Origin: Solirubrobacterales bacterium
GTDB lineage: Bacteria > Actinomycetota > Thermoleophilia > Solirubrobacterales > Solirubrobacteraceae
Direction: 5' to 3'
DNA length: 45,437 bases
NCBI GenBank assembly: GCA_019244745.1
Contig: JAFASF010000063.1
Location: 1 to 45,437 of the forward strand
Under the pieces are notes generated by a model, which made no database searches, had not been told where the DNA came from, and saw only the letters and a program-made list of their open reading frames with translations. This document shows positions 33,352-36,179 of this stretch, piece by piece. The translations under genes and the position numbers were made by a program. The stretch's first letter is position 1; each line of letters opens with the position of its first letter.

Positions 33352-33717
33352 ATGCGGCTCTTCGCCCTGCGGGGCGCCAACCAGGTCACGGCGAACGAGG
33401 GCGAAGAGATACTCGCCGCGACCGGCGAGCTGATGCGCGAGCTGATGGCGCGCAACGAGCTCGCCCCTGACCGCATGGTGAGCTGTCTATTCACGGCCAC
33501 CGAGGACCTCGACGCCGAGTTCCCGGCGGTGGCGGCCCGCAACCTCGGCCTTGACCGGGTGCCGCTCCTGTGCGCGCGGGAGATCCCTGTCCCGGGGTCG
33601 ATGCCGCGGGTGATCCGCGTTCTGGTGCACTACTACGCACCCGAGGACCACGAGCCGCGCCACGTGTACCTCGGCGACACGCAGGCGCTCCGCGCCGACC
33701 TCGAGTCGGCACAATAG
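33352..33717 (+). CDS. aroH: Chorismate mutase, AroH class
   Basis: Converts chorismate to prephenate, the branch point to Tyr and Phe. The 121 residues match the trimeric AroH fold known from Bacillus: FALRGANQVTANEGEEILAATGELM at the N-terminus, LFTATEDLDAEFPAVAAR, VPLLCAREIPVPGSMPRVIRVLVHY and the end RHVYLGDTQALRADL. The Arg of the RGA motif and the Arg in PRVIRVL are active-site residues in the family. Together with the next genes it makes a near-complete route from DAHP synthase to tyrosine. Confidence 0.93.
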   Translation: MRLFALRGANQVTANEGEEILAATGELMRELMARNELAPDRMVSCLFTATEDLDAEFPAVAARNLGLDRVPLLCAREIPVPGSMPRVIRVLVHYYAPEDHEPRHVYLGDTQALRADLESAQ

Positions 33718-34815: not shown

Positions 34816-34854
34816 GTCCGAGATTTGCCGCCAATATCGCGGCTTTTCTCGGAC
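34816..34854. terminator. Strong hairpin after hisC, probable terminator
   Basis: GTCCGAGA (34816-34823) pairs with TCTCGGAC (34847-34854), and inside it GCCGC pairs with GCGGC. It begins 8 bases after the hisC stop and lies before the leader promoter, so it can separate aroH-hisC from the aroF transcript. Confidence 0.6.
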
Positions 34855-34868
34855 CGCTGGCGGTGTGG

Positions 34869-34874
34869 TACAAC
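34869..34874 (+). promoter_or_regulatory. TACAAC, likely -10 box of the aroF leader transcript
   Basis: Preceded by TGTGG (a TGN-type extension) and ending 10 bases before the leader ATG at 34885, so the leader ORF would begin almost at the mRNA 5' end. A weak TTCTCG lies about 17 bases upstream. Confidence 0.5.
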
Positions 34875-34884
34875 TGAGCGCGAG

Positions 34885-34950
34885 ATGACCGGATGCAGCC
34901 GCACCTACGCCACCCACAGCGGCTGCCTCTACTTCTGGCGATTTAGCTAG
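34885..34950 (+). CDS. Leader peptide of the DAHP synthase operon (aromatic attenuator)
   Basis: A 21-residue ORF from ATG 34885 to TAG 34950. Residues 16-21 are YFWRFS and another Tyr is residue 8, so 5 of 21 residues are aromatic and all three aromatic amino acids occur within four codons. That is far from chance and lies directly before the first enzyme of the aromatic pathway. The coding part has a perfect 8-bp inverted repeat, GCAGCCGC (34895-34902) with GCGGCTGC (34919-34926). By analogy with ribosome-dependent attenuators, stalling at 34930-34944 when charged tRNA-Tyr, -Phe or -Trp is scarce would change downstream folding and raise aroF expression. A comparable leader before an aroF gene is known in Corynebacterium. 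The mechanism is inferred. Confidence 0.75.
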   Translation: MTGCSRTYATHSGCLYFWRFS

Positions 34951-35075
34951 GCGCTCGGCCAAGCACTTCCCGCGCCCCCGAACCGGGCGCCTTCGGAGGT
35001 CGAGCGCCGCGGTCTCCCACCGACCTTCGGGCACCAGCCCTTCCGTACAGTTCCCAAGCGTTGAAGGACGAGCAG
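34951..35075 (+). promoter_or_regulatory. Attenuator region between leader peptide and aroF
   Basis: 125 bases with competing pairings. GGCGCTCG (34950-34957), next to the leader stop, is exactly complementary to CGAGCGCC (35001-35008). AGGTCG (34997-35002) can instead pair with CGACCT (35021-35026); the two helices share bases and exclude each other. Further hairpins are 34972-34990 (GCGCCC/GGGCGC) and 35029-35040 (GGGC/GCCC). CCTTC at 35024-35028 and 35039-35043 could each cover the aroF ribosome binding site GAAGG (35063-35067). No T-run is present, so translation control or Rho-dependent ending seems likelier than an intrinsic terminator. Confidence 0.55.
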
Positions 35076-36179
35076 ATGACGACAGCGATCAAACCGACAA
35101 CACGCGTCAGGGTGGTCGACCCGGTCCGCGACCAGCGGATCGAACGGGTCTTGCCGCTCGTGGCCCCCATGACCCTGCTCCGAGAGCTGCCGCTGACCCC
35201 CGAGCACTCCCGCGTCGTGCTGCACGGCCGCGCGGACGTTCACGCGATCCTGAGCGGCGAGGACGACCGGCTACTCGTGGTGGTGGGTCCGTGCAGCGTG
35301 CACGACGTCGAGGCCACCATTGACTACGCGCGGCGACTCAGCGAGAAGGCCTCGAGCCTCCAGGACGACCTGTGCGTCGCGATGCGCGTCTACTTCGAGA
35401 AGCCGCGCACCACGACCGGGTGGAAGGGCCTCATCAACGATCCTCACCTGAACGGATCCGGCGACGTCAACGCCGGCCTGCGCCTGGCACGGCGGGTGCT
35501 GCTCGAGGTGCTGGCGCTGGGCCTGCCGGTCGGGTGCGAGTTCCTCGACCCGATCACCCCGCAGTACATCTCCGATGCCGTGTGCTGGGGCGCGATCGGA
35601 GCCCGAACGGCCGAGAGCCAGATCCACCGCCAGCTCGGGTCCGGGCTCTCGATGCCGGTCGGGTTCAAGAACCGCACCGACGGAAACGTCCAGGTGGCCG
35701 TGGACGCAGTGCGGGCCGCCGCGGTTCCCCACGCGTTCGCGGGCATCGACGAGAACGGCGCTTCGGCGATCCTCTATACGCGAGGCAACCGCGACTGCCA
35801 CATCATCCTGCGCGGGGGCAAGGACGCCCCGAACTACGGCCCCGACGAGGTCGCCCGAGCGCTGGCGCTGTTGCGCGGCGCCGATCTGGAGGAGCGGGTG
35901 ATGATCGACGTCTCACACGACAACAGCCGCAAGGACCCCGCCCGCCAGCCCGAGGTGGCGGCTGACATCGGGCGTCAGATCGCGTCTGGCAACCGCGCGA
36001 TCGTCGGCGCGATGCTCGAGTCGTTCCTGGTCGGGGGCCGCCAGGACCTCAATGGCGACCCCGAGCTCGTCTACGGCCAATCGATCACCGACGCGTGTCT
36101 CGACTGGGAGACGACCGTGCACGTGCTCGACGGTCTTGCCGGCGCGGTGAGAACACGCCGCGCGCGCGCAGCCGGCTGA
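35076..36179 (+). CDS. aroF: 3-deoxy-7-phosphoheptulonate (DAHP) synthase, class I
   Basis: First enzyme of the shikimate pathway, condensing PEP and erythrose 4-phosphate. The 367 residues are of the AroFGH type: VVVGPCSVHDVEATIDYA, MRVYFEKPRTTTGWKGLINDPHLNGSGDVNAGL, LPVGCEFLDPITPQY, GARTAESQIHRQLGSGLSMPVGFKN, HIILRGGKDAPNY and IDVSHDNSRKD. Metal ligands Cys (in GPCS), His and Glu/Asp are present. ATG 35076 has GAAGGA at 8 bases spacing; a TTG at 35061 is in frame but would include the ribosome binding site. Feedback type (Phe, Tyr or Trp) is not readable. Class I enzymes are less common in actinobacteria than class II. Which of aroF/G/H it matches best is not determined. Confidence 0.95.
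   Translation: MTTAIKPTTRVRVVDPVRDQRIERVLPLVAPMTLLRELPLTPEHSRVVLHGRADVHAILSGEDDRLLVVVGPCSVHDVEATIDYARRLSEKASSLQDDLCVAMRVYFEKPRTTTGWKGLINDPHLNGSGDVNAGLRLARRVLLEVLALGLPVGCEFLDPITPQYISDAVCWGAIGARTAESQIHRQLGSGLSMPVGFKNRTDGNVQVAVDAVRAAAVPHAFAGIDENGASAILYTRGNRDCHIILRGGKDAPNYGPDEVARALALLRGADLEERVMIDVSHDNSRKDPARQPEVAADIGRQIASGNRAIVGAMLESFLVGGRQDLNGDPELVYGQSITDACLDWETTVHVLDGLAGAVRTRRARAAG

What the first reader, a model, noticed from the sequence alone, without database searches (positions are those of the whole stretch)
34885..35075. Leader peptide ending in Tyr-Phe-Trp-Arg-Phe before DAHP synthase: candidate attenuator sensing all three aromatic amino acids
The sequence shows a 21-codon ORF with codons for Tyr, Phe, Trp and Phe at 34930-34944, its own promoter-like box 10 bases upstream, a terminator-like hairpin behind it, and 125 bases of mutually exclusive pairings ahead of aroF. 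The arm next to the leader stop (34950-34957) is exactly complementary to 35001-35008, which overlaps the arm of the alternative helix 34997-35002/35021-35026. Short CCTTC segments could mask the aroF ribosome binding site. Trp leaders and a Corynebacterium aroF leader are known, but a leader with all three aromatic codons clustered, in this lineage, would integrate the whole end-product set of the pathway. Mechanism is inferred.
Basis: partly seen in the sequence, partly recalled or inferred. Interest (0 to 1): 0.8.

Follow-up and report, generated by a model that had tools for sequence, protein, structure and literature searches.

The report
Aromatic-amino-acid leader before DAHP synthase
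Just ahead of the gene for the first enzyme of aromatic amino acid synthesis lies a tiny gene rich in tyrosine and tryptophan codons plus an RNA stem, kept almost letter for letter in most sampled relatives, so these bacteria very probably sense their aromatic amino acids by how fast a ribosome reads it.

Summary
The leader is real. The ORF 34885-34950 (MTGCSRTYATHSGCLYFWRFS*) has close relatives in 141 of 181 genomes of its order. All 94 non-redundant loci examined lie directly before a DAHP synthase: 43 of type I-alpha, as here, and 51 of the distantly related type I-beta. All 72 diverse leaders carry Tyr shortly before a shared Trp-Arg-Phe-x-stop. An extended -10 box about 9 nt before the start codon implies a leaderless mRNA. 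A 9-11 bp stem (34950-34960/34998-35008) starts 14 nt after the Trp codon and covaries.

An equivalent leader and stem, with the same 14-nt spacing, precedes this gene in Streptomyces, Mycobacterium, Nocardia and other Actinomycetota, there usually followed by a strong terminator hairpin. Best reading: ribosome-mediated attenuation sensing Tyr and Trp. Phe is uncertain, because its only universal codon lies where a stalled ribosome would cover the stem. The output step (Rho? other?) is unknown.

Odd feature: CGA TTT NNN TAG is frozen at the nucleotide level, although the Trp codon and the last codon vary. The closest known system is Corynebacterium aroR. New variant of a known kind, absent from the Rfam and NCBIfam copies searched.

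The parts
34866..34874 (+). Extended -10 promoter element (TGGTACAAC) of the leader transcript; start codon 10 nt further on, so a leaderless or nearly leaderless mRNA
   Evidence: equivalent TGNTANA element in 45 of 72 related loci vs 1.7 expected, median 9 nt before the start codon
34885..34950 (+). Leader ORF MTGCSRTYATHSGCLYFWRFS*; aromatic codons TAC 34930, TTC 34933, TGG 34936, TTT 34942
   Evidence: homologous leaders in 94 non-redundant loci
34936..34953 (+). Nucleotide-frozen core TGG CGA TTT AGC TAG GCG (W R F S stop)
   Evidence: 87 genomes exact; 141 of 181 genomes with up to 2 mismatches; CGATTT in all but one
34950..34960 (+). 5' arm of the conserved stem P1 (GGCGCTCGGCC); begins with the G of the stop codon, 14 nt after the first base of the Trp codon
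34998..35008 (+). 3' arm of stem P1 (GGTCGAGCGCC)
35046..35051 (+). -10-like box TACAGT (candidate second promoter P2) between P1 and aroF
   Evidence: TAnnnT at -28 to -40 of the DAHPS start in 23 of 37 I-beta loci vs 6.3 expected; a TACAGT box is kept in L005, which lacks the leader
35063..35068 (+). Ribosome binding site GAAGGA of aroF
   Evidence: sequence
35076..36179 (+). aroF, DAHP synthase type I-alpha (regulated gene), followed by tyrA, aroA, cmk
   Evidence: NCBIfam TIGR00034 486 bits, cut-off 173

Best explanation
A leader-peptide attenuator of the DAHP synthase gene. A promoter at about 34869 makes an mRNA that begins at or next to the leader ATG. When Tyr- or Trp-tRNA is scarce, the ribosome waits at the Tyr/Trp codons up to 34938. 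Its leading edge then just reaches the stop codon, so the 5' arm (34950-34960) is free and pairs with the 3' arm (34998-35008) as soon as that is transcribed; this keeps the aroF operon on. When aromatic amino acids are plentiful, the ribosome runs on to the UAG and covers the 5' arm, the stem cannot form, and expression falls. In most Actinomycetota relatives the off step is probably the intrinsic terminator behind the stem. In this lineage there is no terminator and no consistent RBS masking, so Rho-dependent termination in the C-rich spacer is my best guess for the off step. Shown here: leader, codons, stem, spacing, gene association. Inferred: stalling, direction of control, Rho. A second promoter next to aroF may give a basal level.
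For: 94 of 94 non-redundant loci precede a DAHP synthase of one of two distantly related types (family checks), so the association follows the enzyme's function and not one gene lineage. Tyr lies within 12 codons of the Trp codon in 72 of 72; aromatic frequency rises from a background of a few per cent to 62% and 54% at codons -3 and -4. TAT makes up 60 of 139 Tyr codons in that stretch against 9 of 355 in the downstream genes. Stem covariation with many G-U pairs, expected for RNA rather than DNA. The 5' arm starts exactly 14 nt after the Trp-position codon in Thermoleophilia and at +14 in 22 of 23 Actinomycetia loci. A strong hairpin follows the stem in most of the 26 non-Thermoleophilia loci (mean z -3.2). 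Spacer C 39%, G 31%, C>G in 64 of 72, against 35%/37% in upstream coding DNA.
Against: No terminator, no competing helix and no consistent RBS effect in this lineage, so the output step is missing from the evidence. The universal Phe codon sits where a stalled ribosome would cover part of the stem. I found no expression, ribosome-profiling or starvation data for this lineage.
Confidence: 0.8

Rival explanations
1. Translation attenuation: the leader and stem control access to the aroF ribosome binding site (as the reader's CCTTC segments suggest, and as in the LEU element, where leader codons pair with the Shine-Dalgarno box).
For: CCTTC segments complementary to the RBS exist in the window; the RBS is partly paired in the fold.
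Against: Removing the 5' arm changes mean RBS accessibility by 0.00 over 59 loci, with changes in both directions; no conserved partner for the RBS was seen.
Confidence: 0.15
2. Arrest peptide (TnaC-like): the nascent ...WRFx peptide itself stops the ribosome at UAG in response to a free aromatic amino acid.
For: C-terminal R-F-x-stop is nearly invariant; stalling at a stop codon followed by a C-rich spacer resembles tnaC (from memory).
Against: Arg is CGA in every relative listed and Phe is TTT in all but one, which a peptide constraint does not require; the Trp is replaced by Tyr, Arg, Pro, Leu or Ser in a few relatives and the last residue is free.
Confidence: 0.12
3. Upstream DNA element: the core and inverted repeat are operator sites for a regulator acting on the -10-like box next to aroF, and the ORF is incidental.
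For: A -10-like box is enriched next to the gene and persists in a relative without the leader.
Against: Frame-specific aromatic enrichment in otherwise unrelated peptides, a promoter placed for a leaderless ORF, and G-U pairs in the repeat argue for a translated RNA.
Confidence: 0.06
4. Chance ORF without function.
For: The ORF is only 21 codons.
Against: One copy per genome in 141 of 181 genomes of the order, always before an aromatic-pathway gene where checked, apart from three evident chance matches of the loosened pattern.
Confidence: 0.01

Closest known systems
aroR leader peptide of Corynebacterium glutamicum aroF (Neshat et al. 2014, as summarised in PMC11802643 and PMC4046766)
   Same: Short leader upstream of a DAHP synthase gene in an actinobacterium, with aromatic codons; ribosome stalling raises transcription.
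   Different: aroR carries Phe-Tyr-Phe and responds to Phe, not Tyr (PMC11802643). Here Tyr and Trp dominate, the core CGA TTT NNN TAG is frozen, and no terminator is found. The aroR sequence itself was not compared.
trp attenuators and LEU element of Actinobacteria (Seliverstov et al. 2005, PMC1262725)
   Same: Leader ORF with control codons near conserved RNA pairing; some actinobacterial attenuators there also lack terminators.
   Different: That survey found no conserved structure for phenylalanine or tyrosine operons; LEU pairs its Leu codons with the leuA RBS, which is not seen here.
Classical trpL/pheL attenuators of enterobacteria
   Same: Control codons at ribosome distance from the 5' arm of a stem.
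   Different: No terminator with a U-run and no conserved alternative helix in this lineage.
Streptomyces lividans leader peptides (PMC8079986, Table 4)
   Same: Leaderless leader ORFs before amino acid genes are common in Actinobacteria.
   Different: None of the eight listed precedes a DAHP synthase, although L048 and L075 show that other Streptomyces carry one.

Membership tests
Ribosome-mediated attenuator (trpL/pheL type) | Short ORF with clustered codons for the pathway's end products | tested here: met
Ribosome-mediated attenuator (trpL/pheL type) | Conserved RNA stem within reach of a ribosome on the control codons | tested here: met
   covariation; +14 spacing
Ribosome-mediated attenuator (trpL/pheL type) | Intrinsic terminator downstream | tested here: not met
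   for this lineage; a strong hairpin is present in most Actinomycetia loci
Ribosome-mediated attenuator (trpL/pheL type) | Mutually exclusive second helix | tested here: not met
   3' arm versus downstream duplex z +0.20 over 72 loci
Ribosome-mediated attenuator (trpL/pheL type) | Expression rises on starvation for the coded amino acids | not testable with these tools
   needs reporter or RNA-seq
C. glutamicum aroR attenuator | Leader upstream of a DAHP synthase gene | tested here: met
   94 of 94 loci
C. glutamicum aroR attenuator | Common descent with the aroR element | not tested
   aroR sequence not fetched; the Sinomonas relative (L110) has RWYAYF with a GGCTC arm at +14
LEU element | Pairing of control codons with the RBS of the next gene | tested here: inconclusive
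   no consistent RBS effect of masking the 5' arm and P1 uses other bases; codon-RBS pairing and a pseudoknot were not tested directly
Arrest peptide (TnaC type) | Conservation at peptide rather than nucleotide level | tested here: not met
   CGA and TTT codons frozen, last residue and Trp variable
Known Rfam family | Match at gathering score | tested here: not met
   window and 8 loci from Actinomycetia and Thermoleophilia
Known NCBIfam leader peptide | Profile match | tested here: not met
   8 leaders, no match up to E 10; the peptides are very short, so sensitivity is low

The most novel reading that the evidence does not exclude
The frozen CGA-UUU-NNN-UAG stretch is a timing device set by codon identity, not by the peptide. 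A slow Arg codon, a rare Phe codon and a UAG followed by G would hold the ribosome over the 5' arm in well-fed cells until RNA polymerase has passed the 3' arm. This would replace the through-reading frame that does the job in Actinomycetia, and control would need no terminator hairpin.
Probability: 0.3. Interest if true: 0.75.

Novelty: new variant of a known kind. Interest (0 to 1): 0.6.

Why it matters
The entry enzyme of the shikimate pathway appears to be under leader-peptide control across much of the Actinomycetota, where a 2005 survey saw no conserved RNA structure for phenylalanine or tyrosine genes (PMC1262725), and the library copies searched here have no model for it. It ties Tyr and Trp supply directly to the first committed step in both types of DAHP synthase. 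It also offers a natural comparison: the same leader geometry with a terminator in one class and without one in another. That is a way to ask how attenuation works when terminator hairpins are lost, and why two codons are frozen at the nucleotide level.

Tried and rejected
(1) First scan seemed to show close relatives without the leader (L002-L004, L006-L008). Rejected: these loci were either in reverse orientation or carried a type I-beta DAHP synthase between leader and aroF. (2) Terminator or 3:4 helix in this lineage: shuffle tests negative. (3) RBS sequestration: no consistent effect; RBS choice for some type I-alpha genes in that script was uncertain. (4) Frameshift from the leader into the gene (slippery CGATTTA before a stem): rejected because the spacing to the gene varies without regard to frame. 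(5) tRNA-like 5' end (GGCGAUUUAGCU): rejected because the fourth codon varies. (6) Pseudoknot with CGAUUU: no conserved complement was seen by eye in the alignment or spacer. (7) Trp leader before trpE in the own genome: none visible; trpE follows directly on another gene. (8) D'Halluin 2023 could not be read. (9) Invariance of the core is partly by construction; the freer search and the loci found by aroF homology were used for the claims about conservation.

Full report
What is in the sequence. Gene order is chorismate mutase (33352-33717), a HisC-type aminotransferase (to 34808), the leader, aroF (35076-36179), tyrA, aroA, cmk. A terminator-like hairpin at 34827-34843 separates the leader unit from the aminotransferase. 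The leader ORF reads MTGCSRTYATHSGCLYFWRFS*. An extended -10 box TGGTACAAC ends 10 nt before its ATG.

Conservation. An aroF-homology search of 61 genomes and a scan of named genomes gave loci in which leaders ending in [aromatic]..WRF[S/I/T]* lie upstream. The 23-nt pattern TGGCGNTTTANCTAGGCGNNCGG occurs once each in 87 of 399 genomes of the class, all but one in the window's order; the reversed pattern has none. With up to two mismatches it occurs in 141 of 181 genomes of the order. After removing duplicates, 94 of 94 loci are followed by a DAHP synthase: 43 type I-alpha and 51 type I-beta (NCBIfam identities). Of 20 variant hits taken out separately, 16 precede DAHP synthase, 3 are chance matches elsewhere, and 1 (L197) precedes tyrA, with drift to TTC.

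Coding evidence. The N-terminal parts of the leaders are unrelated to one another, but the last dozen codons are rich in aromatics: Tyr occurs in 72 of 72, further Trp in 39, further Phe in 31. Aromatic frequency by codon before CGA is 62% at -3, 54% at -4 and 33% at -5, falling to a few per cent beyond -11. Tyr is written TAT in 60 of 139 cases against 9 of 355 in the downstream genes. The extended -10 box occurs in 45 of 72 loci (1.7 expected), median 9 nt before a start codon: a leaderless mRNA, a common form in mycobacteria (PMC4633059).

The frozen core. CGA and TTT hold in all but one of the relatives (the exception is the tyrA case), though these codons make up about 5% of Arg and 3% of Phe codons in the downstream genes. 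TAG holds except for two CAG cases. The Trp codon before it is replaced by TAT, CGG, CCG, TTG or TCG in a few genomes, and the codon after TTT is free (AGC, ATC, ACC, CGC, AGT, ACT, ACA). So selection acts on nucleotides or codons rather than on the peptide. TAG is understandable, because its G is the first base of the stem; CGA TTT is not explained.

The stem. GGCGYYCGG(CC) pairs with (GG)CCGRRCGCC; the 3' arm begins about 50-90 nt after the Trp codon. On 72 diverse sequences 94.7% of pair cells are standard, with both-sided changes in four pairs (CG to UA at columns 25/101 and 26/100 above all) and G-U intermediates; sliding the partner drops this to 32-48%. Folding z-score is -2.9. RNAalifold finds the same helix.

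What is missing. Behind the stem there is no excess hairpin (z -0.06), the 3' arm has no excess pairing with what follows (z +0.20), and the RBS is not consistently exposed or hidden by the 5' arm. The spacer is C-rich (39% C, 31% G; C>G in 64 of 72), which allows but does not show Rho.

Wider family. Among the named loci, my count by eye is that 31 of 36 from Actinomycetota carry an aromatic leader before DAHP synthase, against one (Thermobaculum, Chloroflexota) of 44 from other phyla. Streptomyces has RWYWRYEPAPGGAG, Mycobacterium RAYWRFIVAPGGA, Nocardia AYFWFSKPAPGG. Their DNA, TATTGGCGCTTTANCNN|GGCTCCGGGTG, lines up with the window lineage's TGGCGATTTANCTA|GGCGYYCGG; the stem arm starts at +14 in 22 of 23 Actinomycetia loci. 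There the ORF reads on through the arm, and a strong hairpin such as GGCAGAGACGACCGTCTCTGCC-TTTCG follows the stem in most loci (mean z -3.2 over 26). So one ancestral leader design probably exists in two forms, with and without a terminator; common descent is inferred from sequence and spacing, not proven by a tree.

Mechanism. With a waiting Trp codon in the A site the ribosome's leading edge lies about 12-13 nt on (established toeprint geometry, from memory), just short of the arm at +14; at the stop codon it covers the arm. A paper on the M. tuberculosis ilvB1 attenuator likewise gives about 26 nt masked at the stop codon (PMC13236596). Hence stall = stem forms, run-through = stem blocked. 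By analogy with trpL, the stem state should be ON. The codons at or before the Trp sense Tyr and Trp; a ribosome waiting at TTT would cover about five bases of the arm, so Phe sensing through it would be weak or reversed.

A second promoter. A TAnnnT box lies 28-40 nt before the DAHP synthase start in 23 of 37 I-beta loci (6.3 expected); in this window it is TACAGT 35046-35051. Relative L005 has lost the leader altogether yet keeps TTTCGTACAGTGTCC right after the aminotransferase gene.

Known or new. The kind (leader-peptide attenuator) is known, and an aroF leader is known from C. glutamicum (aroR; PMC4046766, PMC11802643). A 2005 survey found no conserved structure for Phe/Tyr genes in Actinobacteria (PMC1262725), a Streptomyces catalogue lists no DAHP synthase leader (PMC8079986), and the Rfam and NCBIfam copies give no match. 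The literature library holds open-licence papers only, so earlier reports may exist elsewhere.

Noticed in passing
window 34827-34843: GCCGC-loop-GCGGC followed by TTTTC: a terminator-like site right after the aminotransferase gene, suggesting that the leader-aroF unit is transcribed on its own.
   Followed up: partly
window 35046-35051 and -28 to -40 of DAHP synthase in related loci: Conserved -10-like box, often followed by TTCCAGGC, between attenuator stem and gene; possible second promoter that bypasses the attenuator.
   Followed up: partly
L005: A same-genus relative whose aroF has no leader but keeps the TACAGT box directly after the aminotransferase gene: a natural leader deletion.
   Followed up: yes
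L197: A decayed leader (TTC in place of TTT, Cys/Trp/Phe codons) now standing directly before tyrA, with no DAHP synthase seen next to it there.
   Followed up: yes
L063 (Thermobaculum MAG, Chloroflexota): Similar leader (NYAWFTFRPAPDG) before a type I-beta DAHP synthase, with a hairpin and seven T behind it; transfer, shared ancestry or contamination not resolved.
   Followed up: partly
L061, L044 (Rubrobacter and relative): Leaders with ERFYYR before DAHP synthase, a downstream stem and a terminator hairpin with a T-run; they also contain CGATTT.
   Followed up: partly
L017 (G012) and L198 (G243): Stop codon of the leader changed from TAG to CAG so the frame runs on into the stem; possible drift or sequencing error.
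   Followed up: no
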